Below are positions 34,775 through 57,641 of a DNA stretch of 64,000 bases, in pieces (the first letter of the stretch is position 1; each line of letters starts with the position of its first letter). The position numbers and the translations under genes are program-made. The stretch spans positions 18,410 to 82,409 of the forward strand of contig JAKCDL010000010.1 of the NCBI GenBank assembly GCA_021841935.1, written 5' to 3'. Origin of the DNA: Actinomycetes bacterium (GTDB taxonomy: Bacteria; Actinomycetota; Acidimicrobiia; Acidimicrobiales; Acidimicrobiaceae). The notes under the pieces were generated by a model that saw nothing but the letters and a program-made list of their open reading frames with translations, made no database searches and was not told the DNA's origin.

Positions 34775-36328
34775 GTGGTTCAAATGAGGTCATCTTCCCT
34801 TAAGAGTTTCGTTAAACTCGCGAAAAAGTCAACAGTCGCAGGAATAATTCCCACACTCGTCGTTGGAGCATTTACAGCAACTGGTACAGGCAAGATTATG
34901 TATCCGTCGCCGTCCGATTCCGTTAAGATAAACCCGGGCTTATCCCCGATTGCAAGCGGGCTGCATAGTTCATCTTCGCGTGCAGTTAGTCCTAGTGTTG
35001 TACCAAAAACACAGTTACCAAGAAAGGCGAACGTAATTGGGGTTTCATCAATTTCGGCGCCTTCAAATACCGGTTCATCGCTATCCCAAGCAAATGAAAA
35101 ATTAGCCACCTATCCTGGCTCTTCGGGGTTGGTACAACCTCCGTCGGTAACAACTTCATCGAACGGCACCGCTACCGCGTCGAATCTATCTCCAGCAACG
35201 GCTACGACTAGAACGATGGAACTAAGCGCGGAGTTAACGTCGGCTACAATACCTGCGATTGAGCCAATCGGTGGTAAGAATATCGTAATAACTAGCTTCA
35301 TAAATGTCGTAGATTACGGTGCTGACCCCACCGGGCAGAGCGACTCAACCAATGCAATCATTGCAGCAATAGCTGCGGCTGAATCGCTGAATGATCATGC
35401 GACTGTGTATTTTCCTGCAGGCAGATACATATTGACGAGACCACTGAATCGACTGTTCGACTTTGTCGTGTCCTCGCCTCTCAATTTGGTTGGTGCGGGT
35501 CAAGGTCTAACAGTAATTGAGAACGAGGTCGGTATCGACACTGGCGCTACCGTCCCACCTGGCATGTTTAAAATATCGGGGTCGGGTGGACCTACGCCTG
35601 GTGGTGCAGATGGAACCATAATCGGCGATATGACTTTGGATGTGATGACATACCAATCTGGTACCGCGGTTACCGACTATGGAAACAACACCACCATAGG
35701 TAACTTGACCGTCTACGCTCCCACAAGTACAAATAAATACAATCCAAATCAATTTGGAATTCGCGTAATTGCCGTTTGCAATCCAACCAACATCTTCACG
35801 AATTATCGCGTTGGCAATCTAGTTCAAAATGTTTACATAGCAGGCAACGGTTGGGATGGCAACACTGAGCTCGACATATCCTGCCAGGAAAACACCACTG
35901 TTAACGGAGCAACGATCGTTGGAAATGGCGTTGATATCTACATGAGTCGCGACGACAGCCTCTCAAACCTCAAACTTACGGGTGGGAATAACGGAGCAGC
36001 TAATTACTTCACTTGGGTTATTACTGATTCGCAGAATATCAACTTAACTAATGTTGTAACTACAGGTCAGCCAGGCGTCATAGAACAGTCTTCCGGCGAT
36101 ACTACTTCAAACGTTGTGATAAACAACGAAGTTTCGAATTCCCCCGCAGCGCATATACGGATTGGAGACGCCCTCGATACGACCATCGAAAACAGTAACT
36201 TGGGCGGCATATATCTCGATCCGAGTCGAGTACTAGATGGCCTTACTGTGCAAAATTCAACCTTCGGTAACATCTACTGTGTAAAACCAAGCTACATAAG
36301 GGGATTGTCAGGTCTCGAATGCCCCTAG
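34775..36328 (+). CDS. Secreted right-handed beta-helix protein (pectate-lyase-3 type), paralogue 1
   Basis: This 517-residue protein starts at GTG with AGGGAG eight bases upstream. A signal or anchor at about 18-35 (VAGIIPTLVVGAFTATG) is followed by a Ser/Thr-rich stalk of about 130 residues. From about 180 on is a right-handed beta-helix starting with the pectate-lyase-3 motif VVDYGADPTGQSDSTNAI and FPAGRYILT. Repeated N-x-[ST] coils follow (LVQNVYIAGN, LDISCQENTTVNG, ISNLKL-like). Such domains bind or cleave polysaccharides in phage tails and exopolysaccharide loci. It closely resembles 38916-40163, and both are followed by a sulfotransferase gene. It may act on the exported glycan, for example as lyase or epimerase; the catalytic residues are not evident. 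Confidence 0.75.
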   Translation: MVQMRSSSLKSFVKLAKKSTVAGIIPTLVVGAFTATGTGKIMYPSPSDSVKINPGLSPIASGLHSSSSRAVSPSVVPKTQLPRKANVIGVSSISAPSNTGSSLSQANEKLATYPGSSGLVQPPSVTTSSNGTATASNLSPATATTRTMELSAELTSATIPAIEPIGGKNIVITSFINVVDYGADPTGQSDSTNAIIAAIAAAESLNDHATVYFPAGRYILTRPLNRLFDFVVSSPLNLVGAGQGLTVIENEVGIDTGATVPPGMFKISGSGGPTPGGADGTIIGDMTLDVMTYQSGTAVTDYGNNTTIGNLTVYAPTSTNKYNPNQFGIRVIAVCNPTNIFTNYRVGNLVQNVYIAGNGWDGNTELDISCQENTTVNGATIVGNGVDIYMSRDDSLSNLKLTGGNNGAANYFTWVITDSQNINLTNVVTTGQPGVIEQSSGDTTSNVVINNEVSNSPAAHIRIGDALDTTIENSNLGGIYLDPSRVLDGLTVQNSTFGNIYCVKPSYIRGLSGLECP

Positions 36329-36573
36329 AAGAGTCTCGAAAGGTAATCAACTTCCCTTATGGTACCGAGGTGCGCGAAACGCATACGAGGGAATGAACTA
36401 TCTTCCTAGTTGATTGATATCTTCTTCATTGACTTTATAGTTGAATACGAGAGATGCGTCGTAGGGGTTAATGCTAGGTTTTGCACCCGTCTCGATTTGG
36501 CATTTAGTTATGGAGCTAGTTCAATCAACTAGAACATGCGGCGTAACCGCGATAGGTTAGTAAGGTGAAGTAA

Positions 36574-37554
36574 TTGCAGTCGATTTTGGATATTCGGGAT
36601 ATGCCAAACAGAGGTCGAACTGACAGGATCCTAATTGTCGGTGTCGGTCGAACCGGAAGTACATGGCTCACAAAGGCTCTAGGTCAAACGACAGGATCAG
36701 TGCCATGGTTCGAGCCAGACAGAATCGACGCAGCCCAAATTCCTGGAAAGGACTTTGGAAGATCTGGATTTGGGCCCTACCCCATAATCGACCCGGACGA
36801 TCCGGGAAGTGTCTACCGGCCACTTTGGGACGTGGTTTTCAAAGGCGCGATTACGTCCGACCAACTTCGCCGAATGACTCCTCTCCTGCAACCTTTCCTA
36901 AAGTTACCAAAGCCAATTTTACATCCTCTGGTAAAAGCGGGAGGTACCGTTCTTTCAGCCTTACCACGCAAGAATGTTCGCAACATTGCAAAAACAATAT
37001 TTGCGTGCTTCTCAATCGAGTGGATAGTCAATAACTACGATCCGCAGGTCATCGTGGCGCAGCGTCATCCGTACAGCGTAGTAGCTAGCTGGAGAGAGTT
37101 GGATTTGCCGAAATTCGACATTCTGAATCGTCACGAAATTCTAAAGCGTTATGGCGATCTGTTCGAAGGCAATCCGCCTAGTTCTTCTGACTCTGAACTT
37201 ACGCAGATTGCTTGGATTGTGGGGCTTCAAACCGCTGCCTTGGGTGCCGCGGCGGAACGTCACCCCGAATGGGTCGTGGTAAATCATGAGGATATGTGCG
37301 TCGATCCAATAGAGAAGTTCAAAGCTCTCTGTAAGATCCTTCAGATTCCGTGGTCAGATAATGTTGCAGAATTCCTCGAATCCTCGAATCGCCCAGGGCA
37401 AGGAAAATTGACCAATCGAGTCGCAAGCGAGCAAGTAAACAAGTGGCGTCGAGTCCTCTCGGACGGTGAGGTAGACGAAATTGCATCGGTGCTACAGCGC
37501 TTTCCCAACTACGGCTGGGTAGTAAAGCCAGATGACTGGGCGGAGCTCATCTAG
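36574..37554 (+). CDS. PAPS-dependent sulfotransferase, paralogue 1
   Basis: This 326-residue protein starts at TTG with AAGGTG six bases upstream. Residues 20-31 are the 5'-phosphosulfate-binding loop (LIVGVGRTGSTWL), and residues about 159-175 are the 3'-phosphate-binding segment (VIVAQRHPYSVVASW), as in sulfotransferases. VVNHEDMCVDP is the usual following region. It would move sulfate from PAPS to a hydroxyl, releasing PAP. It lies 245 bases after the beta-helix gene and is closely similar over its length to 43248-44234. PAPS synthesis and PAP removal genes lie 17 kb downstream. The acceptor is probably a glycan or glycolipid, by context. Confidence 0.8.
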   Translation: MQSILDIRDMPNRGRTDRILIVGVGRTGSTWLTKALGQTTGSVPWFEPDRIDAAQIPGKDFGRSGFGPYPIIDPDDPGSVYRPLWDVVFKGAITSDQLRRMTPLLQPFLKLPKPILHPLVKAGGTVLSALPRKNVRNIAKTIFACFSIEWIVNNYDPQVIVAQRHPYSVVASWRELDLPKFDILNRHEILKRYGDLFEGNPPSSSDSELTQIAWIVGLQTAALGAAAERHPEWVVVNHEDMCVDPIEKFKALCKILQIPWSDNVAEFLESSNRPGQGKLTNRVASEQVNKWRRVLSDGEVDEIASVLQRFPNYGWVVKPDDWAELI

Positions 37555-38915: not shown

Positions 38916-40163
38916 TTGAAAGATAAAAGAATCCGCGTAGCGATTGCGGCTTTAGCCTTCGCATTGGTTCCCGCAATAATCTTTGGATTTATAGTAAAAT
39001 TTCAATCTTCTAAACGGATAACTACGTCGTCAACTACTTCAACAACGTTAGCTAGCACGACTACACAACCGTCTACATCTTCGACAACAGTATCAACAGT
39101 TCCGAATGCATCAATAGTTCAATTTAACGGAAGGGTTGTAAACGTACTCAACTTTGGCGCTGACCCGACAGGTGTCAAAGATTCGCGTGCAGCCATCGAT
39201 TCTGCTCTACTTTCAGCCGAAAAAGAACCGGGATCGGAACTCTTTTTCCCACCTGGTACGTATATTCTCACGAGTACAACGACAAAAGTAGGCGACTTTG
39301 TAGTTACCACGCCCATAAGAATTGTAGGGGCTGGCACTTCAGCTACAAAGATAATCAATGAAGTCGGACTTAAAACAGGATCTTCTTCAGCGCCTCCCGT
39401 TTTCGTGATAAAGGGCGGGGGTTCTCCGACGCCCAGCATGGCAAGCGGCACGTTGGTAGAATCATTAACAATTGACTGCTCTACATATATATCTGGTACG
39501 GCAGTTATGGACTTCGCAGACAATACTGCCATAGAAAACCTACTGGTGTACGCGCCTAAGAGTACAGACAACTACAACACAGATCAGTTTGGCGTACGTG
39601 TCATTGCTATTTGTAATCATTCGAATTATCAGACGATATACCGAACTGGAAACCTAGTTCAAAATGTCTCGATTATAAGCGGCGGAAGCGTAGGTAATAC
39701 GGGTCTTGATATTTCCTGCCAGCTGAATACTAATGTTTCGAATGTAACGATACAGGGAAACGGCCTCGACGTTTACTTCAGTCGCAATGTAAATTTGACT
39801 AATCTCCGACTCACTTCTGGACTAAACGGCGAGCAGGGATATTTCACTTGGGTGGTAGTTGGTTCACACAATATCAACTTGTCGAACATCGTTACCGTAG
39901 GAAATGGTGGTGAAATTACACCAGCAACGAAGTCCTTGTCGACGGATATAACGTTAGATAACGAAGTAATGATGTCCAAGACGAAAGACATTTACATTGG
40001 CGACGCAGATGGGGTAAAAATCATCAACAGCCAACTCGGCGGAGTTGCGTTTACACCATCAATTAGGACATCCAACGTACAATTTGTCGGAAGCTCCTAC
40101 AGCGGAGTTCGTTGTCCCCTAGCTTCTAAAGTCAACAATTTATCGGGGATTGCATGCGGATAG
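38916..40163 (+). CDS. Secreted right-handed beta-helix protein (pectate-lyase-3 type), paralogue 2
   Basis: This 415-residue protein starts at TTG; a GGGG-type site precedes it. A signal or anchor at about 8-27 (VAIAALAFALVPAIIFGFIV) leads into a short Thr-rich stalk, then a beta-helix with VLNFGADPTGVKDSRAAI and FPPGTYILT. It matches paralogue 1 through the helix (GNLVQNVSI, GLDISCQLNTNVS, SGIACG at the end versus SGLECP). The stalk is about 100 residues shorter. The old GTG start used in paralogue 1 would run into TGA here, so this copy has shifted to a new start. It is predicted to act outside the cell. Confidence 0.75.
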   Translation: MKDKRIRVAIAALAFALVPAIIFGFIVKFQSSKRITTSSTTSTTLASTTTQPSTSSTTVSTVPNASIVQFNGRVVNVLNFGADPTGVKDSRAAIDSALLSAEKEPGSELFFPPGTYILTSTTTKVGDFVVTTPIRIVGAGTSATKIINEVGLKTGSSSAPPVFVIKGGGSPTPSMASGTLVESLTIDCSTYISGTAVMDFADNTAIENLLVYAPKSTDNYNTDQFGVRVIAICNHSNYQTIYRTGNLVQNVSIISGGSVGNTGLDISCQLNTNVSNVTIQGNGLDVYFSRNVNLTNLRLTSGLNGEQGYFTWVVVGSHNINLSNIVTVGNGGEITPATKSLSTDITLDNEVMMSKTKDIYIGDADGVKIINSQLGGVAFTPSIRTSNVQFVGSSYSGVRCPLASKVNNLSGIACG

Positions 40164-42504: not shown

Positions 42505-43115
42505 TCACCAGAGATCGGTTTGATATTTGAGTTCCTTTTGAATTCTTCGAGTACCATGCGTACCCTGTGAAGCTTTGAAGTTCGCCCTGATACGAACTTC
42601 GATTGCTGAGATTCGATTAGTTCTAACGAAGTTACCCCTATTAGACCAAGAGTAATAATCAGAACACGAAACTTTCAATATATTAGCCAACCGTGAAATT
42701 GACAATGGCCACTCTCCGCCCTCACCAGGGAGATTCAACGATTCTGTGGCATGTACGTAAGAGTACACGCATGGCTTTCCCATAGAACTAATTGTCCTTT
42801 TTGAGCTCTGCTCTTCTCACGACGAACTTTTATGAGGTCTCTTCTTTCTTCAACACTAAGTGATCCTTCATTTGATCCAGATGCAGCTTCTAGACGTCGA
42901 CTTTAATCTATAACCATCGATAATGCGACACCAGAGAAATGGATAATTCCTTTACGACTTCTGGAACATTCCCTCCAGAATCTTCGACCAGAAGAGTGAG
43001 TTTCTCATCTTGAACGAGAGGGGGAATTCATGCCTTGTCTTCGACAAAAATAACTCCCTTTCTATCAACAAAATATGTTGGATTAAGAGATGTCAAACTA
43101 ATCTGGGAAACCTCA
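42505..43115 (-). mobile_element. ISx (IS3 family) 5' fragment
   Basis: On the minus strand the left end TGAGGTTTCCCAGATTAG ends at 43115, followed by OrfA remnants and the OrfB N-terminus (LANILKVSCSDYYSWSNRG, IRANFKASQGTHGTRRIQKEL). The catalytic half is absent. It is the last piece of IS debris before sulfotransferase 2. The gap 42261-42504 shows nothing clear. Confidence 0.7.
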
Positions 43116-43247: not shown

Positions 43248-44234
43248 TTGGAATCAATACTTAACGCTAAGCCCAGTCTGCGTAATGGACGGGATGACAG
43301 GATACTTATAGCTTCAATTTCGCGAACAGGAAGTACGTGGCTTGTGAATGCCCTGGCAAATACGCCGGGAACCAGAAGTTGGCCTGAGCCGGACGGCATT
43401 GGCACAAGTCTTGACGCGACAGAAAAGTATGGTTCAACGGGGTTCAGACCATATCCGATATTGAAAGCGGGAGATGACGGAGGCGTGTATCGTGCGCTCT
43501 GGGATATAGTCTTCAAAAGCGCCGTATCTGAAAAAATGGCATCTACCGTGGAACCGATGTTGAAGCCTTTCCTTAAGCTTCCGAAGCCAATACTTGAACC
43601 ACTTGTGCGCGCTGGTGGCAAGGCCCTAACAATGCTACCCAGCCGCGCTGAACGCAATCTAGTCAAAACTGTATACGGCTGCTTCGCTCTTGACTGGTTT
43701 GTTGACGTATACGACCCTCGGGTTATTGTTACACAACGACATCCATTGAGCGTAATCGCTAGCTGGCGTGATGTGGGGATACCTCAGTACGATCTAATTA
43801 CACGGCCAGAATTTCAAGAGGCTTACTCTGATTGGTACGAGGGTAACCCGCCAAGCGAACGTGACTCTAATATGACTCGAATCGCATGGATCGTTGGCTT
43901 TTTAACCACTGTTATGAGCGATGCTTATGATCGTCACCCCGAATGGCTATTGGTTAATCACGAAGATATGTGCATCGATCCCGTCAGGAAATTCAAAGCA
44001 CTCTGTAACGTAGTGGGTATACCGTGGTCAGATAAAGTGGCGGACTATCTCACGAAATCGAATCGACCAGGAGAAGGTCTTAAACCCGAGAGGATCACCT
44101 CGGAGCAGGTTGACAAATGGCGCTCGATTCTTACCGAAAATGAAGTACGTGAAGCTGTAGAAGTGCTTATGCGATTTCCAAACAAAGGTTGGATTCGGCG
44201 GCCCGAAGATTGGGAAGAACTGCTTCAACTTTAG
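43248..44234 (+). CDS. PAPS-dependent sulfotransferase, paralogue 2
   Basis: This 328-residue protein starts at TTG with AAGGGTG upstream. The PAPS 5' loop ILIASISRTGSTWL (residues 19-32) and 3' loop VIVTQRHPLSVIASW are intact, and VNHEDMCIDP is conserved. It aligns end to end with paralogue 1 (both finish RRPEDWEELL or KPDDWAEL) but differs enough to suggest divergent acceptors. Originally it probably followed beta-helix paralogue 2 directly, as in module 1; about 3.1 kb of IS remnants now separate them. Releases PAP, which CysQ in this locus can degrade. Confidence 0.8.
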   Translation: MESILNAKPSLRNGRDDRILIASISRTGSTWLVNALANTPGTRSWPEPDGIGTSLDATEKYGSTGFRPYPILKAGDDGGVYRALWDIVFKSAVSEKMASTVEPMLKPFLKLPKPILEPLVRAGGKALTMLPSRAERNLVKTVYGCFALDWFVDVYDPRVIVTQRHPLSVIASWRDVGIPQYDLITRPEFQEAYSDWYEGNPPSERDSNMTRIAWIVGFLTTVMSDAYDRHPEWLLVNHEDMCIDPVRKFKALCNVVGIPWSDKVADYLTKSNRPGEGLKPERITSEQVDKWRSILTENEVREAVEVLMRFPNKGWIRRPEDWEELLQL

Positions 44235-46653: not shown

Positions 46654-47466
46654 ATGAACCAAAAGGTATCAATCGTCGTTCCGACTTTCAACTCGTCGGC
46701 AACGCTTGAACGATGTCTCAAGTCAATAAATGAGCAGACCATTGCGTGCGAAACGATTGTCGTGGATAATTTTTCGACCGACAATACGTTAGAAATCGCC
46801 AGAAAATATGCCGACCATGTATTTTCGCAAGGGCCGGAACGTTCTGCACAGCGTAACTACGGGTTGCAACAGGCAACTAGTTCCGTAATTGGATTCATTG
46901 ACTCCGATATGAGGCTCGAACCCGATGTCGCCGCCGAAGCCTACTCGAGGATTATGGAAGGTGATTCAGGCGTAGTTGTTCCGGAATATACGGTCGGAAC
47001 AACCTATTGGGCGCACGTACGAGCCTTCGAACGAGAAATGTACCTAGGTGTTTCGGCAGTGGAGGCAGCTCGGTTTTTCCCCCGTACACTTGTGGTCGAC
47101 CTAGGCGGATACAATGAGCAGCTTACTGGTGGGGAAGATTGGGATTTGGATTTGCGGGTACGCAAACATGGAACAATCGGACGTACTCTCGCCCGTATCG
47201 AACATGATGAAGGTGAAGTTCGACTTTTAGCTGCGTGGCGAAAAAAAGCGTATTATGCTGACGGCTACCTTGCTTTCGGTTCCACCCACGGATTCTCGTC
47301 CCTGCTGAAGGTGGTTCGACAGTGGCCTTACCTTAGATCACCGAAGGTTCTCCTAAATCGATTTGGACCAGGCTTGATTGTACTTAAAGTCGGCGAAGGA
47401 GTGGCAATTGCTCTTCATGTCATTCGAGGACGCCTGGCAAAAGTCAACCGCTTCCGCCGGCGATAG
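46654..47466 (+). CDS. Glycosyltransferase family 2
   Basis: This 270-residue GT-A glycosyltransferase starts at ATG behind GGAAAG. It shows VSIVVPTFNSSATLERCLKSI, ETIVVDNFSTDNT, GFIDSDMRLEPD (DxD metal site) and GGEDWDLDLRVRKHG (ED acceptor motif). It lacks membrane helices and probably works at the inner face. It stands after the second sulfotransferase and an ISx copy, in the same direction as the glycan genes downstream. Donor and acceptor are not predictable. Confidence 0.8.
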   Translation: MNQKVSIVVPTFNSSATLERCLKSINEQTIACETIVVDNFSTDNTLEIARKYADHVFSQGPERSAQRNYGLQQATSSVIGFIDSDMRLEPDVAAEAYSRIMEGDSGVVVPEYTVGTTYWAHVRAFEREMYLGVSAVEAARFFPRTLVVDLGGYNEQLTGGEDWDLDLRVRKHGTIGRTLARIEHDEGEVRLLAAWRKKAYYADGYLAFGSTHGFSSLLKVVRQWPYLRSPKVLLNRFGPGLIVLKVGEGVAIALHVIRGRLAKVNRFRRR

Positions 47467-47953
47467 TTTCGAGACTGGATACGAACCATAACTTCGGTCA
47501 CCTTATTTTGATTGCGATAGCAGAACGGTTCAAATTGAGTGAACGGTCACTCGAAGTAACATAATCTGCGTCAAAAAGCTTAAATAGCCACTTAGAGCAT
47601 TCGTAATGAACCACAACTCGTGAAAAATTTTTTTCCGTAGTCAAAAAAAGGCGATGATTTTCAAGTTAGGCGAAAATAATTAGGGTATTCTTATTCTCGG
47701 TGGACGAGGAGTGAGAACTTGAAAGCCGCTCAAAGAGTCGTATTCAAACTTCTGGATTAACTTGAGAGTTAAATAAGTAGGCTAAGCCAAGTTAACGATA
47801 TGTTCACACCCGTGTAAACGTATCGAAAAGCTTGTCCGTTACATTTGGTAATGCAAGGGCTAGAGGAGATTTATATAAAGTGTTTTTGCCTTCCATGCAT
47901 GATTATGATCTCTCAATTCAGTTGCACCTATTCTCCAATTTCGAGGCCGTAAT
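47467..47953. other. Intergenic region
   Basis: A short palindrome, GAGTGA-ACGG-TCACTC, lies at 47537-47552, possibly an operator or weak terminator. No gene is recognised; it presumably holds the promoter for the following glycosyltransferase genes. Confidence 0.35.
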
Positions 47954-50284
47954 ATGACTACTCATAAGTTACTCGGCATGAACCGTAACGAACTTGAGAG
48001 AAAAATTGTTTTTTCTTTCATTATTGACTTCACGTTACGCTCAAATGATATTGCGGACGTCAGCTATTGGCAAAATTTTGGTAAAGATCCTCGGTGCGAA
48101 ATAATTGGCATCATTGAGGAGTCTCACATACGGTCGAAGAGCTGGGATTTTGAATGCGTTGAAGCGCAAGAATCTTTGGCTTTGCAGTACGATCAGGCGG
48201 CGAAGGTTGCTCAGGGTGAGATCCTGTTGATGCTAGATGCCAGTGTCCGGGTCCCACTTTCATTCATCGACCGGCTTATTGAAATCTTTGACGACCCCAA
48301 TCTCAAAGTGGTGCGAAGCCGAATAGATCGGATAGTCGAGCCAAAGGGAGTATCTAAAGCTCTCAACGTTGCGACCTCAGAACTCCTACATAGCAGGGTG
48401 CAACTAGGAGGCAATGACGACAGTTTGTCTCCTTACAGCTTTTTGCAAGAGATTCTTTTGGCAGTTCGTCGCGAAGACTTCTCGAAAGTTGGTGGATTTA
48501 GGGTTTTGGCGAACGGGTATGGTGCGAGTGGAAGGCTCGCAATGAAGATCTCCGAGTTAGAAGGGTCAAAGCAACTTGACCTTAGCGACCTGGAGCTTCG
48601 TCGTCCAGCCTTTAAAGGAATTAGAGAAGTTAGAAACTCGATTCGCTCTGCGTCAAGAGAGCTCGGATATCTACAGCGAAGAATACCAGAATTTGCTACT
48701 AGTTCCAGGATTATTTGGAGAACTTTGTCAGCAGCTCTGGCCATCACGGGATTTTGTTTGGCTTTGCTGAACCCAAATCTCGAAACCACCGCTATAGGAA
48801 TCAGCCTCGCGACCATAGTCACAATTGTTGCTATTGTTCGTTCAAGCAAAAGCTCGTTGGTCACCATCAAATCCGAGCCTAAAGGGTTGAAGAGAGTATT
48901 TTTTGCTATTCAACTGCTCTTAGCTCGCTGCTTGGTCCTGGCAATAGAGTTGCCATATTTCTTGGGTAGGTTTATTAGACCAAATCTTGACGAAAGAGTG
49001 CAAGACAAGAAAAGTGGAGAGACCCGTCTGCGGGTTCTAGTTCTCAATTGGCGAGACCGTACGCATCCGAGGTCTGGCGGGGCAGAAAACTACGTGTACC
49101 ACCTCGCTCAACATTGGATAGAGCACGGTATCCAAGTTGGCTGGCTGACACAAAAACCTCGTGGAGGAAAGGCTCATGAGCAAATTGGCGGAATTGAATA
49201 CTTTCGTGTTGGTGGTGCGCTAACTCAATATTTTCTTGTGCCGCTCAAGTATCTCATATCCTTAAGAGGTTCCTATGACGTCATTATTGACTGCGAAAAC
49301 GGAATACCATTCTTCTCTCCCTTCTTTTCAAGGCTCCCAAAAATTCTTCTCGTTCATCATGTACATCAGGAGATATTTCGCCGTGAACTACCGACGCCCT
49401 TCCGACAAATAGCAATGGCGCTCGAAGCCAAGCTGATGCCACTCGCTTATCGAAATGTGGAAGTTGTCGCCGTTGCAAACCAGGTGAAGAAAGACCTCAT
49501 GGACATTGGCTTTGACGCAGAAAGAATCTCCGTAGTAAAAAATGGAGTGCACCTGCCTGAAAGGGGCATATCGTCTCCAGGTCCCATTCCTTCCTTGCTT
49601 TGCCTTGGACGACTTGTCCCGCAAAAGTCAGTTGATGTTTTGATTCGGTCAGTCCCGAAGATGATTAGTGAGTTAGGTGACATAACCATTAACGTCGTTG
49701 GACAGGGACCTGAAAGATTACGTCTGGAACGACTAGCCCTTTCCCTGGGCGTGGCATCTAATGTCCACTTCCATGGACACGTTAGCAACGAAGAGCTTAA
49801 TCGCCTTTCTGCCGAGGCATGGATTTCGGTTTGTCCGAGTGCGTATGAGGGCTGGGGATTGGTATGCATGGAGGCTAGCGCTAGGGGCATACCTGTCGTA
49901 GCTTCAAACGTACCCGGCTTGCGGGAGTCGGTTAGGGATGGGGAGACCGGAGTTCTCTTTCCTTACGGAGACCATGAGAAACTGGCCACGACGTTGATAG
50001 AACTGATTAACGACGACAAAACTCGTAAATCTTTAGGTTTAGCTGGAAAGCGTTGGGCGTCCATGCACTCATGGAGTACCAGTGCAGATCTCTTCGAGAG
50101 ACTGCTATTCGATATTTCGGGTCTGCAGAAAACTGTGGGCATTGAAATAAGCCGTAGAGTCATTGTCGACTTTCGATCCCCACAAGGAGAGAGTCAAGTT
50201 GGCGGCTACGACAGGGAGTCTATCGATCTCAATATCGACGGATCTCCTTATGATCCATTCGAAAAAACTAGCGAATTGTGGTGA
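47954..50284 (+). CDS. Bifunctional glycosyltransferase: GT2-like domain, membrane helices, GT4 domain
   Basis: This 776-residue protein has three parts. Residues about 20-230 resemble a GT2 domain (AAKVAQGEILLMLDASVRVP, VRREDFSKVGGF), though the canonical DxD is weak (LDAS). Residues about 256-340 contain three hydrophobic helices. Residues about 357-735 are a GT4 domain: LVLNWRDRTHPRSGGAENYVYHLA, LLCLGRLVPQKSVDVLI, and the donor loop CPSAYEGWGLVCMEASARGIPVVAS with its E-x7-E. A single chain could thus add two sugars, or the first part could serve as a scaffold. It is followed after 7 bases by a DPM-like GT2. Confidence 0.75.
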   Translation: MTTHKLLGMNRNELERKIVFSFIIDFTLRSNDIADVSYWQNFGKDPRCEIIGIIEESHIRSKSWDFECVEAQESLALQYDQAAKVAQGEILLMLDASVRVPLSFIDRLIEIFDDPNLKVVRSRIDRIVEPKGVSKALNVATSELLHSRVQLGGNDDSLSPYSFLQEILLAVRREDFSKVGGFRVLANGYGASGRLAMKISELEGSKQLDLSDLELRRPAFKGIREVRNSIRSASRELGYLQRRIPEFATSSRIIWRTLSAALAITGFCLALLNPNLETTAIGISLATIVTIVAIVRSSKSSLVTIKSEPKGLKRVFFAIQLLLARCLVLAIELPYFLGRFIRPNLDERVQDKKSGETRLRVLVLNWRDRTHPRSGGAENYVYHLAQHWIEHGIQVGWLTQKPRGGKAHEQIGGIEYFRVGGALTQYFLVPLKYLISLRGSYDVIIDCENGIPFFSPFFSRLPKILLVHHVHQEIFRRELPTPFRQIAMALEAKLMPLAYRNVEVVAVANQVKKDLMDIGFDAERISVVKNGVHLPERGISSPGPIPSLLCLGRLVPQKSVDVLIRSVPKMISELGDITINVVGQGPERLRLERLALSLGVASNVHFHGHVSNEELNRLSAEAWISVCPSAYEGWGLVCMEASARGIPVVASNVPGLRESVRDGETGVLFPYGDHEKLATTLIELINDDKTRKSLGLAGKRWASMHSWSTSADLFERLLFDISGLQKTVGIEISRRVIVDFRSPQGESQVGGYDRESIDLNIDGSPYDPFEKTSELW

Positions 50285-50291
50285 ATAAATA

Positions 50292-51059
50292 ATGCCAGTA
50301 ATTGATATGACATTAACCCTAGTAGTCCCAGTATTCAATGAAGAAATTCGTGTTTCAGAGTCATTTGATGCCCTCTTCGATTACGTGGCAGATTGGAACT
50401 GGGGAAGTAGATTGGTCTTCGTTGACGACGGAAGCACGGATCGCACCGTTGCCGTATTACGCGAGAAGATCGAATCTAAGGATCTTAATTTTGCGTCGGT
50501 AATCGAACGGCCCCACCTAGGTAAAGGTGCATCAGTTCGATGGGGTCTAAAAACAGCAGGTACTGACATCGCTGCTTTTTGCGACGTCGATTTAGCGACA
50601 CCTTTAGACGAATTAGATCGAATTATTCAACGCAGTGTCGAAATAGAGGGCTTGGCAATAGGATCGCGTTCCATTCCTGGTTCAAATGTTGTTCAAAGAG
50701 AGAGTATCAAGCGTGAAATTGCTGGGAGGGCATTCAATCGCCTTGTACAAATTCTCGCATGCCCTGGTATTTACGATACTCAATGTGGTGCAAAAGCAGC
50801 ACCAGTTGGTGTCTGGCGACTTGTATTGAATGATTCTGTAGAAGACGGGTTCGCATGGGATGTTGAGGTTGTATCAAGGGCTCTTTATGAGGGAATTAAG
50901 GTATCAGAGATGCCAATTAGGTGGTCTCATGATAACCGATCTCGCGTAAATGTACTTTCCGATGGACTCAAGATGACGCGAGCCATTTTTCGAATGCGAT
51001 CGCAGCAGATTATTCGTCGAGATCTTAGATCCGGTACCCGATCGACTGAGATTCTGTAA
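50292..51059 (+). CDS. GT2 polyprenyl-phosphate sugar synthase-like (DPM/ALG5 type)
   Basis: This 255-residue protein has LTLVVPVFNEEIRV, RLVFVDDGSTDRTV, GKGASVRWGLKTAGTDIAAFCDVDLATPL (DxD) and GSRSIPGSNV. These are the motifs of dolichol/polyprenyl-phosphate mannose or glucose synthases. No C-terminal membrane helices, so it is the short, soluble form. Such enzymes charge a polyprenyl phosphate with one sugar, which GT-C enzymes then use outside the membrane; this fits the 1299-residue GT-C protein nearby. The start is ATG 7 bases after the GT2-GT4 gene, so they are co-transcribed. Confidence 0.8.
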   Translation: MPVIDMTLTLVVPVFNEEIRVSESFDALFDYVADWNWGSRLVFVDDGSTDRTVAVLREKIESKDLNFASVIERPHLGKGASVRWGLKTAGTDIAAFCDVDLATPLDELDRIIQRSVEIEGLAIGSRSIPGSNVVQRESIKREIAGRAFNRLVQILACPGIYDTQCGAKAAPVGVWRLVLNDSVEDGFAWDVEVVSRALYEGIKVSEMPIRWSHDNRSRVNVLSDGLKMTRAIFRMRSQQIIRRDLRSGTRSTEIL

Positions 51060-51270: not shown

Positions 51271-52725
51271 GTGTCAAATAGCTTCGTGCGATGGTTTGTA
51301 GCTGTTGTGACTGGGCTCCTCATTGTAGGTTCAATAGCTTTCGGTGTCAGGCTCGTCATGCCTGCTACAGCTCCTTCGGTTTTGCAGCCCCAACTTGCAA
51401 CGGTCGCGCGAACAAGTTTTCAAAAAGCCGTTAACGTTACGGGTACGGTCGTACCTGTAACTGAAGCGGTGGTTGGCTTTCATGCTGGAGGAACCATATC
51501 CTCTATAAACGTGAAAGTAGGTGAGAATGTAACTTCAGGCACCGTCCTCGCAACTTTGGCGGATCCAAATGGTGCAAACTCTGTGGCTCAAGCGCAAGCG
51601 AATCTTCAAAATGCGCAAGCTCAACTCGCGAGTGCCCAAAATCCATCAAATCCTGGGCAAATTGCCCAATTGCAAACGGCTTTAACGGATGCCCAAAGTA
51701 ATCTCTCGCAAACACAATCGACAGTCCAAAGCATAAATAGTAGCGACGCGCAACGAATTCAAGAACAACAAACTTTGGTAAACACGGCGCAGACCAACTA
51801 CACAAATGGCGGATGTGCAAGCCAACCGACATCCTCTAATTGCTTGTCGTTACAAAGCTCTCTTACAGCTGCCCAGCAGGTGCTCGCTGACTTGCAGACG
51901 GCTCAGTCAAAAGACAGCGCGAACGGTCAGTTACAGGTCGCGCATGCACAAGCAACAGTAGATGCAGCCCAAGCGGCGCTTACTGCGGCCTCTACTCCCG
52001 ACCCTAATGCTGTCGCAGCTGCTCAAGCCAAAGTGAGCGGTGCCCAGTCTGCTCTCGCAAATGCGAGTGCTATTGCGGCCGAGGCAAATCTTGTCTCGCC
52101 AATTAACGGGACCGTCTTACAGATCAATGGCAATGTAGGAGACGTAGTCTCAGGGGGTCAACCTACCTCCGTCGCACTTCCAGGTATTTCTGCTCCAGCA
52201 TCCGCCCTTGCCTCATCTTCGGGGGGAACGGGCAGCGGGGGACTTCCATTTATAGTCATTGGAACTCCCAATGACTTAGCGGTTGCGTTCTCGTTTCCTG
52301 CATCCGATCTTGGTACAGTCTCTGTTGGAAACTCCGCTGCAGTCACGGGCGCACCAACCAACTTTGCGTCAATCGATGGCTCAGTCATCGGGGTGTCACA
52401 AGATACTGTTGTCTTGGGTGGTGTTCCGTCCTACTACGCAACAATGTCCCTGAAGAGCGCTGGAAGCCTGAAAGCGGGGGAGACTCTAGATGTATCGGTA
52501 ACTTCATCTCTGCTTAAAAATGTCCTATCCGTACCAAGTTCTGCAGTGTATCAACTCGGTGGGTCCCCCTATGTTGATGTCTGGAATGGGAAGCAGGGTG
52601 TACCTACGCCGATTACTGTTGGTGTTCAAGGGACAAGGTTAGTACAAGTTTTAGGCGGTCTTAGAGACGGCCAACAGGTTGTCTTGGTGGCGAATCAAGG
52701 TTTTAGCCAGTTGGTTAATCCATGA
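51271..52725 (+). CDS. Periplasmic adaptor of MacA/HlyD type
   Basis: This 484-residue protein starts at GTG with AGGGGAG four bases upstream. A single N-terminal membrane helix (about 7-28) is followed by a biotinyl/lipoyl-like half (TGTVVPVTEAVVGFHAGGTISSINVKVG). A long coiled-coil hairpin comes next (Gln/Ala-rich AQAQANLQNAQAQLASAQ, about 100-260). Then come the second lipoyl half (EANLVSPINGTVLQINGNVGD), a beta-barrel, and a VLSVPSSAVYQ membrane-proximal domain. This is the standard adaptor layout. The stop overlaps the permease start (ATGA). In a Gram-positive-type cell it may link the permease to the outer envelope or act as a secreted-substrate chaperone. Confidence 0.8.
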   Translation: MSNSFVRWFVAVVTGLLIVGSIAFGVRLVMPATAPSVLQPQLATVARTSFQKAVNVTGTVVPVTEAVVGFHAGGTISSINVKVGENVTSGTVLATLADPNGANSVAQAQANLQNAQAQLASAQNPSNPGQIAQLQTALTDAQSNLSQTQSTVQSINSSDAQRIQEQQTLVNTAQTNYTNGGCASQPTSSNCLSLQSSLTAAQQVLADLQTAQSKDSANGQLQVAHAQATVDAAQAALTAASTPDPNAVAAAQAKVSGAQSALANASAIAAEANLVSPINGTVLQINGNVGDVVSGGQPTSVALPGISAPASALASSSGGTGSGGLPFIVIGTPNDLAVAFSFPASDLGTVSVGNSAAVTGAPTNFASIDGSVIGVSQDTVVLGGVPSYYATMSLKSAGSLKAGETLDVSVTSSLLKNVLSVPSSAVYQLGGSPYVDVWNGKQGVPTPITVGVQGTRLVQVLGGLRDGQQVVLVANQGFSQLVNP

Positions 52726-53975
52726 ACGAAACAACTTCGTCCGAATCAGACATACCTGGCGGTTACGAAACCGCTGCTTCTAGAGACGGTCGGAAGCTAG
52801 TGACAGCCGCATTCTTTGACATTGGGTTTATAACTCTTGCTACTATCATCATGACTCTCGCACTTGCATCAGCAAACATTGTTAACTTGCTTAGCCAAAG
52901 CGATGTTGGTGGTATTTCAAAGACCGCAGTAATGGTTACTTCGATACCGACCTACGCGAACGGTCTGGAATATGGGCTTAACACAAAAAGCATCAGTAGC
53001 GAAGATATAACCGCGCTAAGCAGTCCCGGCGCGATCCCAGCAGCTTCATTTGTAGCCCCCGTTTCACTGTCGACGAGAGTAGTCAGTTACACATACCGTA
53101 GCGATAACACTGTTGAAATTAAAACTACGCCTGCTTATCTTCCTGCATCGGGCTACAAGCTTAAATTGGGCTCTTTTCTTTCATATGCTAACGTTAGCCT
53201 CAATCAAGATGTGGTAGTTATCGGATCTTCGGTTGAGAAGGGCTTGTTTGGAACGAGTGATCCAATTGGACAAAGTGTCTCCATCGGAGGAGGGAGCTAT
53301 AAGGTCATCGGTACATTAGCTACCCGAGGGTTTGCGTCTGCACTCGACTTGGACAACGTCATCATTGTTCCTTTGAATTCAGCTAGCTCGGTAACCAGTA
53401 GCTTTAGTGGAGTATCTCAAGTTCTAATTGGTACACGATCGCCGGCACTTGCGCAGCAAGCTGCACAGCAGGCCCAAGCAGAGCTTCTGTCCCTAAATCA
53501 AATTACCGATCCCGCGCAGGCGAACTTCACTATTTTGACCCATGATTCGTTCGTGGGTTCCCAACTTGCCGAGTTGAAAACCTTGAAGAGATCCCTTACT
53601 TTCTTCGCGTTACTTCTGTTCGTCATTTCTGCAGTTCATCTTGCTCGGATTTCTTCGAGGAACACTAGACGGTACGAAAATCAAGGTGAAACTGATGGAG
53701 AGTCCCTTCGAATCGTAGATCTCGCACGAGTGCTAACGATTGGCATTATTGGCGGTGTTGCCGGCGTTGGAATTGGAATTTTCGTCACTCCGTTCCTTAG
53801 GGTTTTAGCTCCCGGAGCACAACTTCTTGGTGGCATTAGTCTCACCGATGCGGGTTTGACACTGCTCATAGCCACTAGTTTTGCGATTGCATCATTATTT
53901 CCAGCTGCAATCGGATTTATACGTCAAGGCGGTAGTAAGGATTCTAGATTAAGTCCCACCGCTCGAGAAGAATAG
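52722..53975 (+). CDS. MacB/FtsX-like permease without ATPase
   Basis: This 417-residue protein has the one-plus-three helix topology of FtsX/MacB: helix 1 at about 30-52, a large extracytoplasmic core (QDVVVIGSSVEKGLFGTSDPIGQSVSIGG, VIGTLATRGFAS), then helices at about 290-308, 336-360 and 378-400. The family normally pairs with an ABC ATPase, none of which lies in this operon or elsewhere in the window apart from the import ATPase. It overlaps the adaptor gene by four bases and precedes cysQ by 18 bases. An orphan ATPase elsewhere would have to serve it. Confidence 0.75.
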   Translation: MNETTSSESDIPGGYETAASRDGRKLVTAAFFDIGFITLATIIMTLALASANIVNLLSQSDVGGISKTAVMVTSIPTYANGLEYGLNTKSISSEDITALSSPGAIPAASFVAPVSLSTRVVSYTYRSDNTVEIKTTPAYLPASGYKLKLGSFLSYANVSLNQDVVVIGSSVEKGLFGTSDPIGQSVSIGGGSYKVIGTLATRGFASALDLDNVIIVPLNSASSVTSSFSGVSQVLIGTRSPALAQQAAQQAQAELLSLNQITDPAQANFTILTHDSFVGSQLAELKTLKRSLTFFALLLFVISAVHLARISSRNTRRYENQGETDGESLRIVDLARVLTIGIIGGVAGVGIGIFVTPFLRVLAPGAQLLGGISLTDAGLTLLIATSFAIASLFPAAIGFIRQGGSKDSRLSPTAREE

Positions 53976-53993: not shown

Positions 53994-54836
53994 TTGAGTG
54001 GAGATTTCCAAGAAACGAATGTCCAACCGTACGCAGGAATGGAAGACACGTCCGAAGATGCGCGACTTGCTGCAGAAATTGCGGAGAGTGCTGGACGGTT
54101 ATTAATTGAGTTGAGAGAGCAAGCATTCCGGGGAGAATATGATCCACGTGAACTTGGTAAGATTGGCGATTCGTCCTCTGATCTTTTCATCCGTCAACAA
54201 CTTGAGCAACTTCGTCCGGATGACGCCATTCTTTCTGAAGAGGAACTTAAGAGTGATCTCCGACGCCATTCGGTAGATCGTGTTTGGATCGTTGATCCAC
54301 TAGATGGAACCCGTGAGTTTGGTATGACGGGGCGAGTCGATTGGGCGGTCCATGTAGCGCTTTGGGATCGTCGAGCCGATTCAATCGACGGTAGGCCGGG
54401 CGATCTTGTGGCCGGAGCTGTGGCGCTTCCCGCACAAGGTGTGACTTTGGAAACATCGTATGCGAAAAGAACGCAATTTGATGATAAGCGGCGGCCTATC
54501 ATCTTGGTAAGTCAAAGTCGGCCACCCGCATGGGCGGAATACGTTGCGACGGCTATTGATGGCGTTCTAGTTGGTATGGGATCAGCTGGAGCTAAATGCG
54601 CTGAAGTTATTCTCGGCAGAGCTGATGCCTACCTTCATGCGGGTGGGCAGTACGAATGGGACTCTGCCGCTCCTGCGATTGTTGCACGCAAGGCCGGATT
54701 GCACGTCTCACGCATAGACGGCACACCGCTCACTTACAATCATGAAGATCCCTACAGTCCTGATCTCGCAATCTGTCGTACAGACCTGTGGCCGAAGATA
54801 TTTTCTGCACTTTTAGAAGGTGGTGCTCTTGAATAA
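53994..54836 (+). CDS. cysQ: 3'(2'),5'-bisphosphate nucleotidase, CysQ-like
   Basis: This 280-residue protein starts at TTG; GAAGGAG lies 12 bases upstream. It belongs to the inositol-monophosphatase-like superfamily with SEEE (metal site 1), DPLDGTREF at about residues 101-109, and the C-terminal [16 protein letters not shown]. The sequence style is actinobacterial CysQ. It converts PAP, the by-product of sulfotransferases, to AMP; this needs Mg2+. Its place between export genes and the sulfate-activating genes supports a role in a sulfation pathway. Inositol phosphate activity is also possible. Confidence 0.8.
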
Positions 54837-55737
54837 GTCGAAACCTCGTCATCTGCAACAGCTTGTGGACGAAAGCATTTTTATCTTTCGTGAAGCAGTT
54901 TCGGAAGCGGAAAGACCTGTTTTACTGTATTCAATCGGTAAAGATTCATCAGTCTTGTTGAATCTTGCGCTCAAGGCCTTTGCTCCTGGAAAGCCTCCCT
55001 TTCCGTTGCTGCACGTCGATACCACGTGGAAGTTCAAGGCTATGTATGCCTTTCGCGACGATTTGGCGAAGCGCTACGAAATGGATCTAATTGTCCACCA
55101 AAACCCTTATTGTCTAGAGAACAATATCAACCCTTTCGATCACGGATCGGCACGTCATACTGAACTTTGGAAGACGGATGGTCTCATCCAAGCTCTCCAA
55201 CAACACAAGTTCGATGTTGCATTTGGTGGTGCGCGTCGGGATGAGGAGCGATCTCGTGCGAAGGAGCGAGTCTTCTCCGTGCGTTCTCCATCACAAGGAT
55301 GGGATCCCAAACAACAGCGTCCAGAGCTCTGGAATACCTACAACAACAAACTAGCGCAAGGTCAAAGTATTAGGGTTTTTCCACTTTCCAATTGGACTGA
55401 GTTAGACATTTGGCAATACATAGCTATCGAAGAGATAGATATTGTGCCACTATACTTTGCGGCACCGCGCCCCGTCGTCGACCGCGATGGTTTAATAATT
55501 ATGGTCGACGACGATCGGTTTAGATTCTTGCCTGATGAAAAGCCTGAAATTAGAAGCGTACGTTTTAGGACATTAGGTTGCTATCCACTATCAGGCGCCA
55601 TCGAGTCCAACGCCACGTCGATCAATGACATAATTCGTGAGCTCGAGACAGGTACAACGTCAGAACGACAAGGGCGTGTGATCGACAAAGATGGTATTGC
55701 ATCGATGGAACGGAAGCGTCAGCGAGGTTATTTTTAG
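54829..55737 (+). CDS. cysD: Sulfate adenylyltransferase subunit 2 (CysD)
   Basis: The frame is open from a GTG at 54820, but TTG at 54829 has AGAAGG eight bases upstream and overlaps the cysQ end; I prefer it (302 residues). The PP-loop [10 protein letters not shown] lies near residue 35-44. [12 protein letters not shown], the [18 protein letters not shown] block and a conserved C-terminal [11 protein letters not shown] are all typical of CysD. It uses ATP and sulfate to make APS with the CysN GTPase. Operon member; cysNC follows after two bases. Confidence 0.92.
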
Positions 55738-55739
55738 AT

Positions 55740-57641
55740 ATGTCAAGCTCTCATAATGACTCCGGAATTTCTGGTTTAGTTAGCGGCTCTGAAGATTTGG
55801 GGCTCCTTAGATTTCTCACTTGTGGAAGTGTGGATGATGGTAAATCCACACTTATTGGTCGCCTTTTATACGATAGGAAGCTAGTTTACGACGACGTCGT
55901 GGATCAGCTGCGCGAGGAGTCAAAGAGATTTGGGACACAAGGAGATGAGATCGATTTCGCACTTCTTGTTGACGGATTAGAAGCTGAGCGCGAACAAGGT
56001 ATAACAATTGATGTCGCATATCGTTACTTTTCAACAGACCGCCGCCGATTTATGGTCGCCGATACTCCCGGACATGAGCAGTACACAAGGAATATGGTTA
56101 CCGGTGCATCAAATGCCGATGTTGCACTAATTCTCGTTGACGCGAGCAAAGGGGTTCGACTTCAGACTAGGCGTCACAGCTTTATAGTAAACCTGCTCGA
56201 CTTGGAGCATGTCGTTCTAGTTGTAAACAAGATGGATCTTGTGGACTATTCGCAAAGTCGATTCAATGGTATAGTCGACGAGTACCGCCTATTTGCCGAT
56301 GGAATCGGATTAAAGTCAGTTACCGAAATTCCGGTCTCGGCACTCCGTAGCGATAACCTTACGTATCGTAGTACTAATATGAGTTGGTTCGACGGACCAA
56401 GCTTATTGGAATACCTAGAAACGGTTGAGGTCTCTAACCGAAGCGTGCTTAGACCAAGTAGATTGCCAGTACAAAGGGTGGTTCGCCCAGACTCTGAATT
56501 TCGTGGTTATGCAGGGACAATTGCAACTGGCACCATCAAGGTTGGCGATGAACTTATTGCCGCGCCACGTCGAGATCAATTTAAGGTTACATCGATTCTG
56601 ACTGCTGATGGCGAAGTTGACGAGGCCGAAGCAGGTAGAGCAGTAACTGTGACTATCGACAGTGAAGTTGACATTAGCAGAGGTGATGTTCTAGCAAAGG
56701 CGACAGAACTGCCCCAAAGCTCCGACAGACTCCAGGCAAGCATTGTTTGGATGTCGACATCACCTATGCTTCCCGGAAGACCCTACATAATCAAGATGGG
56801 ACACAAAGTCGCCGTAGCTAGCTTTGAAGCTCCAAGATTCGTTTGGAACGTAACAACACTTGAGCACGTCGCGGCTCGCACACTTGAGCTCAACTCAATT
56901 GGCGTTTGTCACATTGATCTTGATACGGCAGTAGTCTTTGAACCATACGTCGAATCAAAGGCCATGGGGTCATTTATAGTTATCGATCGGGAGACTTTAG
57001 AAACAGTGGCAGCGGGGATGATCCAATTCGGTCTTCGCCGCTCTGAAAATATTCATTGGCACACATTTGAAGTTAACCGCGATACTCGCCGAGAGCTTAT
57101 GGGCCATGACTCTGGAGTTGTCTGGATGACAGGACTGTCCGGTGCAGGCAAGTCCACTATTGCAAACCTGCTCGAGCGCAGACTTGCCTCTTTAGGTGTT
57201 CACACCTACATTCTCGATGGCGACAACGTTCGGCAAGGTTTGAATAAGGATCTCGGTTTCACCGATGCGGATAGGGTTGAAAACATACGTCGAGTGGCCG
57301 AGGTAGCAAAACTAATGGCAGACTCCGGAATCGTTGTGATCGTATCGTTCATCTCTCCATTTCGAGCGGAACGTGAATTCGCCAGACGTATTATGCCCGA
57401 AGGAACGTTTTTTGAAGTCCATGTCGATGTTTCAGTAGCGGTTGCCGAATCAAGAGATCCAAAAGGGCTCTACCTGAAGGCACGCGCCGGGAAATTACCC
57501 AATTTTACTGGAATCGACTCCCCGTACGAGGTGCCAGAGTTTCCCGAAGTGCGCATCAATGCGGCCGAAAGTAGCCCAACAGAGTCAGCGGATATTATCG
57601 TTGCTGCGCTAGTTGAAGCAGGAATAGTTAGAGCATCGTAA
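55740..57641 (+). CDS. cysNC: Bifunctional sulfate adenylyltransferase subunit 1 / APS kinase
   Basis: This 633-residue fusion starts at ATG. The CysN part (about 1-440) is an EF-Tu-like GTPase: P-loop GSVDDGKST at 29-37, DTPGHEQY at about 108, NKMD at about 162, and beta-barrel domains. The CysC part (about 450-633) has its own P-loop GLSGAGKST near 464, ILDGDNVR and VIVSFISPFRAERE. Together with CysD it turns sulfate into PAPS. CysNC fusions are widespread in actinobacteria. The downstream end forms a terminator hairpin. No cysH or sulfite reductase accompanies it, so PAPS here is likely spent on sulfotransferases. Confidence 0.92.
   Translation: MSSSHNDSGISGLVSGSEDLGLLRFLTCGSVDDGKSTLIGRLLYDRKLVYDDVVDQLREESKRFGTQGDEIDFALLVDGLEAEREQGITIDVAYRYFSTDRRRFMVADTPGHEQYTRNMVTGASNADVALILVDASKGVRLQTRRHSFIVNLLDLEHVVLVVNKMDLVDYSQSRFNGIVDEYRLFADGIGLKSVTEIPVSALRSDNLTYRSTNMSWFDGPSLLEYLETVEVSNRSVLRPSRLPVQRVVRPDSEFRGYAGTIATGTIKVGDELIAAPRRDQFKVTSILTADGEVDEAEAGRAVTVTIDSEVDISRGDVLAKATELPQSSDRLQASIVWMSTSPMLPGRPYIIKMGHKVAVASFEAPRFVWNVTTLEHVAARTLELNSIGVCHIDLDTAVVFEPYVESKAMGSFIVIDRETLETVAAGMIQFGLRRSENIHWHTFEVNRDTRRELMGHDSGVVWMTGLSGAGKSTIANLLERRLASLGVHTYILDGDNVRQGLNKDLGFTDADRVENIRRVAEVAKLMADSGIVVIVSFISPFRAEREFARRIMPEGTFFEVHVDVSVAVAESRDPKGLYLKARAGKLPNFTGIDSPYEVPEFPEVRINAAESSPTESADIIVAALVEAGIVRAS

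What the first reader, a model, noticed from the sequence alone, without database searches (positions are those of the whole stretch)
34775..57641. Apparent dedicated locus for a sulfated extracellular glycan
One region holds two sulfotransferases, sulfate activation (cysD, cysNC), PAP removal (cysQ), a flippase, several glycosyltransferases, a GT-C-like protein and two secreted beta-helix proteins. No sulfite-forming or reducing gene is present. PAPS made here would therefore feed sulfotransferases, and CysQ would relieve PAP inhibition. Sulfated surface glycans are well known in mycobacteria (small sulfolipids) and in algae or animals, but a full polymer-type locus of this build in a non-mycobacterial actinobacterium would be novel.
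Basis: partly seen in the sequence, partly recalled or inferred. Interest (0 to 1): 0.75.

Follow-up and report, generated by a model that had tools for sequence, protein, structure and literature searches.

The report
Gene cluster for sulfated surface glycan
A bacterial gene cluster, found in similar form in several relatives, joins genes for activating sulfate with sulfotransferase genes and genes for sugar-chain assembly and export, and it likely makes a sulfate-decorated sugar coat; in some of the relatives no gene for the usual nutritional use of sulfate was found, so there the activated sulfate would serve only for decoration.

Summary
The genes are real, but the flippase and the GT-C-like protein lie outside the stated interval (29151-34432, minus strand). 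In the family (42 genomes) the sulfotransferase (6) occurs only where cysD (9) occurs. The window's own genome has a second, complete assimilatory operon (sat, cysC, cysH, sir) on another contig, so cysDNC here looks redundant for cysteine synthesis. In 4 of the 6 sulfotransferase genomes no sat, cysH or sir was detected, so PAPS there has no visible use but sulfation. In five relatives the sulfotransferase directly precedes the flippase, and in six database proteins the flippase is fused to the GT-C/TPR protein, which ties sulfation to glycan export. A dedicated sulfated-glycan locus is well supported by genomics. Polymer type is not: no Wzy, initiating transferase or chain-length protein was found; a sulfated lipoglycan, glycoprotein glycan or protein remains possible. 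The kind is known (Cobetia, Vibrio capsules; Actinoplanes predicted). New are the lineage, the assembly machinery, and sulfate activation without detected reduction. No chemistry was tested.

The parts
27029..28135 (-). GT4 glycosyltransferase; possible module member (a 43% homologue lies in the G148 locus only)
29151..33050 (-). 1299-aa membrane protein: GT-C-like N-terminal region (13 hydrophobic segments in all, GDQGW at residue 60), a lipobox-like motif at residue 956, then TPR repeats; predicted lipid-linked-sugar-dependent transferase
   Evidence: overlaps the flippase gene by 4 bp
33047..34432 (-). multispanning flippase-like protein; homologues fused to the GT-C/TPR protein in 6 database proteins
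   Evidence: no Pfam match above a cut-off, so the name rests on its fused homologues and hydropathy
34775..36328 (+). beta-helix protein BH1 (PF12708)
36574..37554 (+). sulfotransferase ST1 (PF13469); no hydrophobic segment found, PAPS-site motifs present
38916..40163 (+). beta-helix protein BH2 with N-terminal hydrophobic segment; model matches mannuronan C5-epimerase A-modules
43248..44234 (+). sulfotransferase ST2, 53% identical to ST1
46654..47466 (+). GT2 glycosyltransferase (GT2a)
47954..50284 (+). GT2-GT4 fusion glycosyltransferase
50292..51059 (+). GT2b, related by sequence to dolichol-phosphate mannose and undecaprenyl-phosphate sugar transferases; predicted polyprenyl-phosphate sugar synthase
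51271..52725 (+). HlyD-type membrane-fusion protein
52722..53975 (+). MacB_PCD protein, no ATPase gene beside it
53994..54836 (+). CysQ-like phosphatase, predicted to remove PAP
54820..55737 (+). CysD, sulfate adenylyltransferase small subunit
55740..57641 (+). CysNC, sulfate adenylyltransferase large subunit fused to APS kinase

Best explanation
The locus likely makes a sulfated cell-surface glycan: CysD and CysNC would turn sulfate into PAPS, cytoplasmic ST1 and ST2 would pass the sulfuryl group to a lipid-linked sugar chain built by the locus glycosyltransferases, CysQ would clear the PAP left over, and the flippase with its GT-C/TPR partner would bring the chain out and extend or attach it. 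Shown here: gene content, conserved linkage in five relatives (a sixth in part), a separate assimilatory operon beside which this cysDNC is redundant, no detected reductive genes in four sulfotransferase-bearing relatives, and flippase/GT-C fusions. Inferred: substrate, topology and chemistry of every step, the outside action of the beta-helix proteins (epimerase, lyase or hydrolase fold) and the part played by HlyD-MacB. In four relatives a PatA/LpxL-type acyltransferase belongs to the set, so the product may be lipid-anchored; in the window's genome no such copy was detected.
Against: No chemical evidence of any sulfate ester. G199 has CysH and Sir but no Sat, so its module CysDNC may also feed cysteine synthesis. 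G148 has BH, cysDNC and glycosyltransferases but no detected ST and no adjacent cysQ. BH homologues occur in G020, G043, G073 and G088 without a detected ST, so BH is not tied to sulfation. Of the 18 distant ST places, 12 were read with 6.9-19.9 kb around them, and only 1 has cysD nearby. The best fold match of ST is tyrosylprotein sulfotransferase, which does not favour a sugar acceptor. In the window itself ST and flippase are not in one operon (BH1 lies between, strands differ). Absences rest on draft genomes (76-98% complete) and on a loose first-look search that missed the window's own sulfotransferases when asked by family.
Confidence: 0.7

Rival explanations
1. Protein or peptide (tyrosine) sulfation with dedicated export, working like the rax system of Xanthomonas: the ST would sulfate a secreted protein, perhaps the neighbouring beta-helix protein, and HlyD-MacB would help export it.
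For: ST model is nearest to tyrosylprotein sulfotransferases; HlyD and MacB sit in one run of genes with cysQ-cysD-cysNC in the window, G199, G406, G407 and G408; the rax locus pairs ST with a membrane-fusion protein and an ABC transporter and uses raxP/raxQ for PAPS (PMC4216712, passages); each window ST has a BH beside or near it, and both paralogue pairs are old; one BH tyrosine is invariant in 21 of 21 rows.
Against: ST adjoins the flippase, not HlyD-MacB, in all five relatives that have ST and flippase; BH occurs without a detected ST in four genomes; no C39-peptidase ABC transporter among the 30 window proteins scanned; small peptide genes were not searched for.
Confidence: 0.12
2. A sulfated glycolipid or lipoglycan, in the manner of mycobacterial sulfolipids, rather than a polysaccharide: a short sulfated sugar head built on an acylated lipid and exported. 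This overlaps the main reading, which leaves the size and anchor of the glycan open, so the two odds do not exclude each other.
For: A PatA/LpxL-type acyltransferase (PF03279) beside or near GT2a in G280, G199, G406 and G407, each of which has a second copy elsewhere; CysQ nearest to 5djf, which I recall as the M. tuberculosis enzyme; no Wzy, initiating or chain-length gene among the proteins scanned.
Against: No module acyltransferase was detected in the window or its draft genome; the flippase and the GT-C/TPR protein suggest outside assembly of a larger glycan (inference).
Confidence: 0.3
3. cysDNC and cysQ serve ordinary sulfate assimilation, and their position beside sulfotransferases is incidental.
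For: G199 lacks detected sat but has CysH and Sir, so its CysDNC could feed them; in G416 cysD follows sat and sir in a row.
Against: The window's genome has a complete separate operon; four ST-bearing relatives have CysD without detected CysH or Sir; the G416 and G174 cysD copies are only 59% identical to the window copy, against 66-73% for the six module copies.
Confidence: 0.08

Closest known systems
Cobetia marina KMM 1449 sulfated capsule cluster (PMC11766843; passages seen)
   Same: cysNC, cysD and cysQ in a cluster with sulfotransferase and glycosyltransferase genes; sulfated capsule structure reported
   Different: ABC-transporter (Kps) export in a marine bacterium, with a sulfate permease; no flippase-GT-C/TPR unit in the passages seen
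Vibrio sp. KMM 8419 sulfated capsule cluster (PMC11641403; passages seen)
   Same: second copies of cysC, cysN and cysD with sulfotransferases in a capsule cluster; structure reported
   Different: ABC-type export, three sulfotransferase genes (one assigned to O-antigen), marine Vibrio; cysQ not mentioned
Actinoplanes missouriensis wps-1 (PMC13390465; passages seen)
   Same: actinobacterial cluster with two sulfotransferases; a neighbouring sulfate adenylyltransferase/APS kinase family gene is needed for normal sporangia
   Different: Wzx/Wzy/Wzz type; sulfated product predicted only; the neighbouring gene was not activated together with the cluster; cysQ not mentioned
Synechan xss cluster of Synechocystis 6803 (PMC8205485; passages seen)
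   Same: two sulfotransferases, glycosyltransferases and flippase; sulfated exopolysaccharide shown
   Different: has Wzy and a co-polymerase; the term PAPS does not occur in the text held; cysD was not looked for
Rhizobial nodPQ-nodH and Xanthomonas raxPQ-raxST (PMC4216712; passages seen; nodPQ from a title in its reference list and recall)
   Same: sulfate-activating genes devoted to a sulfotransferase for an exported product
   Different: lipo-oligosaccharide or peptide signal; different export genes

Membership tests
PAPS-dependent sulfotransferases (PF13469) | family score above cut-off and PAPS-site residues | tested here: met
   34.5 and 28 bits against 27; R26, G28, R164 and S172 invariant in 24 rows (their role is recalled); fold match
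CysD / CysNC | NCBIfam scores above cut-offs | tested here: met
   485/413 and 923.3/715 bits
CysQ (TIGR01331 equivalog) | score above curated cut-off | tested here: not met
   84.5 of 228.8 bits; yet E 2.3e-62 to the PAP phosphatase 5djf, so it is called CysQ-like
Sulfated capsule/EPS cluster with its own PAPS supply (Cobetia, Vibrio type) | cysDNC plus sulfotransferase plus glycosyltransferases in one locus | tested here: met
Sulfated capsule/EPS cluster with its own PAPS supply (Cobetia, Vibrio type) | sulfate ester in the glycan | not testable with these tools
   needs chemistry
Wzx/Wzy polysaccharide locus | Wzy polymerase, initiating phosphoglycosyltransferase, chain-length protein | tested here: inconclusive
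   none among 30 of the 48 window ORFs of 120 aa or more scanned with Pfam; the N-terminal two thirds of the 1299-aa protein have no Pfam match, so a polymerase role is not excluded
Mannuronan C5-epimerase (AlgE A-module) | right-handed beta-helix fold | tested here: met
Mannuronan C5-epimerase (AlgE A-module) | catalytic residues and activity | not tested
   the sequence alignment covers the first ~75 residues well and the rest weakly
rax-type peptide sulfation system | ST in an operon with a membrane-fusion protein and a C39-peptidase ABC transporter | tested here: not met
   HlyD and MacB are present but no C39 ABC transporter was seen among the proteins scanned, and ST is not in their run of genes

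The most novel reading that the evidence does not exclude
A lineage of actinobacteria that activates sulfate only to decorate its surface glycan, as animals do, having no reductive sulfate assimilation, and that assembles this glycan with an undescribed machine in which flippase and GT-C/TPR transferase form one unit (fused in relatives) and secreted epimerase-fold proteins remodel the chain outside: a bacterial counterpart of sulfated glycosaminoglycan making.
Probability: 0.2. Interest if true: 0.78.

Novelty: new variant of a known kind. Interest (0 to 1): 0.56.

Why it matters
Sulfated polysaccharides are described in papers of 2021 and 2026 as nearly confined to cyanobacteria among bacteria, while two marine bacterial capsules have reported sulfated structures. 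A conserved, compact module with its own PAPS supply in this actinobacterial family would widen that range. The relatives that have PAPS synthesis genes but no detected sulfate reduction give a natural test of what PAPS is for. The flippase/GT-C/TPR pairing points to an uncharacterised export-assembly unit. If the cells are acidophilic iron oxidisers, as I recall for cultured members of the order's type family (not shown here), a strongly acidic sulfate ester would stay charged at low pH and could bind metals.

Tried and rejected
Ordinary cysteine assimilation as the role of cysDNC: disfavoured by the separate C29 operon and by relatives without detected CysH/Sir.

A lost acyltransferase gene or extra BH/ST copies in the gene-poor stretches: blastx of nine gaps against the proteins in hand and against ORFs of related loci found only IS3-type transposase remnants and the ORF at 57888, itself in the query set.

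Genes upstream of ST in G406 and G408 (M15 peptidase, also in G407; DAO oxidoreductase; amino-acid permease; GntR regulator) were taken as neighbours, not module members: no homologues in the window.

ST is less often found with Sat (1 of 6 ST genomes, 21 of the 36 others), but not beyond chance (p 0.087), nor is CysD against Sat (p 0.27).

The PF13469 family search of the own genome found nothing although the window holds two such proteins; I changed to protein queries. Negative family searches carry the same risk.

The single genome-contig scan gave one distant relative, from Halobacillus. PDB searches gave no match for the flippase profile, and for the 1299-aa profile the 60 of 73 matches shown all fall on its TPR part. 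Literature: a four-term search on sulfated exopolysaccharide in actinobacteria gave none; sulfotransferase with Acidimicrobi- gave 3 papers and sulfotransferase with exopolysaccharide, acidophil- and actinobacteri- gave 4, none relevant by title and start of abstract; (133 papers, 15 listed) was not followed further. Searches (15 of 41 listed; 10 of 46 listed) brought the Vibrio and Cobetia papers; no listed title pointed to a bacterium with sulfate activation without reduction. These searches cover open-licence PMC papers only, so absence from print is not shown.

Full report
What is there. The window is G000:C15:18410-82409, to the end of the contig, in an unnamed 2.53-Mb draft genome of 30 contigs, 86.6% complete. 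Pfam and NCBIfam confirm two sulfotransferases (36574-37554, 43248-44234), two beta-helix proteins (34775-36328, 38916-40163), a GT2, a GT2-GT4 fusion and a second GT2 (46654-51059), HlyD and MacB_PCD proteins, and a CysQ-like, CysD, CysNC run (53994-57641). The flippase (33047-34432) and a 1299-aa membrane protein with C-terminal TPR repeats (29151-33050) lie just upstream on the other strand, outside the stated interval; they overlap by 4 bp. The genes I annotated cover 54% of the window and 71% of 29151-57641; the rest holds IS3-type transposase remnants and stretches without recognisable genes.

Where the genome makes cysteine. The genome's only other PF01507 match and its NIR_SIR matches (one protein) lie on contig C29. 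There sir, a sirohaem-synthesis-type gene, cysC, cysH and an ATP-sulfurylase (sat) stand in one row on one strand; sat, cysH, cysC and sir each pass at least one NCBIfam cut-off. The C29 CysH shows the cysteine pattern CC...CxxC, which I recall as that of APS reductases; if so, even the assimilatory route does not need PAPS. This is a lead, not a test. The window's cysDNC is thus a second sulfate-activating system.

Who else has it. Close relatives of the sulfotransferase are rare: of 397 genomes drawn from the order, 20 have a match at E 1e-10 or better, and apart from the window's own genome only G280 and G199 match at about 50% identity; the other 17 match at 24-39%. In the 42 genomes searched in the family, ST is found in 6 (G000, G280, G199, G406, G407, G408), CysD in 9 (those six, G148, G174, G416) and Sat in 22. 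ST genomes are a subset of CysD genomes (Fisher p 1.6e-5, without correction for kinship). Of the six, only G000 has Sat. In a CysD tree the seven module copies group together, though with support below the tool's star (92/95).

Synteny. On one contig G406 has ST, flippase, GT-C/TPR, GT2b, GT2-GT4, an acyltransferase, GT2a, cysNC, cysD, cysQ, MacB, HlyD, a further GT2-like gene and BH; G280 has cysQ-cysD-cysNC, GT2a, acyltransferase, GT2-GT4, GT2b, BH, ST and part of the flippase at the contig end. G199, G407 and G408 have much the same genes split over contigs (HlyD-MacB-cysQ-cysD-cysNC on one, ST-flippase-GT-C on another); a close GT2a was not found in G408, nor GT2-GT4 and GT2b on the G199 stretches read. 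G148 has BH (cut), cysD, cysNC, a GT4, GT2b and a homologue of the GT4 half of GT2-GT4, but no detected ST and no adjacent cysQ. ST stands directly before the flippase on the same strand in all five relatives that have both; three measured gaps are 9, 15 and 18 bp. In the window this order is broken: BH1 lies between, and the flippase runs the other way.

A functional tie to export. Of 21 database relatives of the 1299-aa protein, 6 (1711-1826 aa) carry a flippase homologous to the window's at their N-terminus; four of these are named by their source 'O-antigen/teichoic acid export membrane protein/tetratricopeptide (TPR) repeat protein'. The GDQGW motif and a lipobox-like site before the TPR part are present in the five module copies aligned. 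GT2b resembles dolichol-phosphate mannose synthase and undecaprenyl-phosphate sugar transferases. The reading that GT2b feeds a lipid-linked sugar to the GT-C protein on the outer face is inference.

Sulfate activation without detected reduction. Among the nine CysD genomes, a CysH-type protein was found in three (G000, G174, G199), and NIR_SIR in five (G000, G280, G174, G199, G416), the G280 one being a nitrite-reductase-type protein beside a molybdopterin oxidoreductase. So G280 (91% complete), G406 (88), G407 (96), G408 (76) and G148 (98) have CysD but no detected Sat, CysH or Sir. G199 has CysH and Sir but no Sat, so its module CysDNC could serve both uses. G416's cysD stands with sat and sir, apparently assimilatory, and G174's is not linked to the module in the 19.9 kb read. 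These absences come from drafts and a fast search; the same search missed the window's own ST when asked by family.

Mechanism and rivals. The best account is a dedicated sulfation line for a surface glycan: PAPS from CysD-CysNC, transfer by cytoplasmic ST to a lipid-linked glycan, PAP removal by CysQ, export by the flippase, outside assembly by GT-C/TPR, remodelling by BH. In M. tuberculosis, CysQ degrades PAP, which inhibits at least one sulfotransferase (PMC3141025, passages seen). Whether the product is a polymer is open: no Wzy, initiating or chain-length gene was seen in 30 scanned window proteins, and in four relatives an acyltransferase of the PatA/LpxL kind belongs to the set. A rax-like protein-sulfation reading is kept because of the TPST-like fold and HlyD-MacB, but ST goes with the flippase, not with HlyD-MacB.

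Against what is known. Cobetia marina (cysNC, cysD, cysQ, sulfotransferase, sulfated capsule structure), Vibrio KMM 8419 (second cysC, cysN and cysD copies, sulfotransferases, sulfated capsule structure), Actinoplanes wps-1 (two sulfotransferases, sulfated product predicted, neighbouring Sat/APS kinase family gene) and synechan show that the kind exists, and one predicted case is already in an actinobacterium. New here, as far as these papers and searches go: this family, the flippase-GT-C/TPR unit, the beta-helix and HlyD-MacB partners, and relatives with PAPS synthesis but no detected sulfate reduction. A further order member from another family, G342, has ST, glycosyltransferases, a PF00953 transferase and cysD-cysNC together, so such loci may have arisen more than once; but of the 12 distant ST places read (of 18) only this one has cysD nearby.

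Noticed in passing
window 24305-24709, 28362-28795, 45133-45519, 59412-59879: Remnants of IS3-type (rve) transposases scattered through the region; together with long gene-poor stretches they suggest past insertion and decay.
   Followed up: partly
window 51271-53975: HlyD and MacB_PCD genes overlap by 4 bp but no ABC ATPase gene stands beside them; the pair stands next to cysQ also in G199, G406, G407 and G408.
   Followed up: partly
window 29151-33050: A lipobox-like site (VASCG; LSSCG or LSACT in the four module relatives) follows a hydrophobic segment just before the TPR part, as if a TPR lipoprotein had been fused to a GT-C protein.
   Followed up: partly
window 42764-42909 and 46057-46202: A 146-bp direct repeat, 78% identical, in gene-poor stretches on both sides of ST2.
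   Followed up: no
window 16265-17551: A 428-aa ORF matches only a short part of the DNA photolyase FAD domain.
   Followed up: no
L038 (G342:C8): A genome of another family of the order has a sulfotransferase, two GT4, a GT2, a DegT aminotransferase, a PF00953 transferase and cysD-cysNC within about 19 kb.
   Followed up: partly
L058, L059, L060, L056/L057 (G088, G073, G020, G043): Beta-helix homologues in two other families without a detected sulfotransferase; the flanking genes scanned in G020 and G073 are metabolic, regulatory or housekeeping types.
   Followed up: partly
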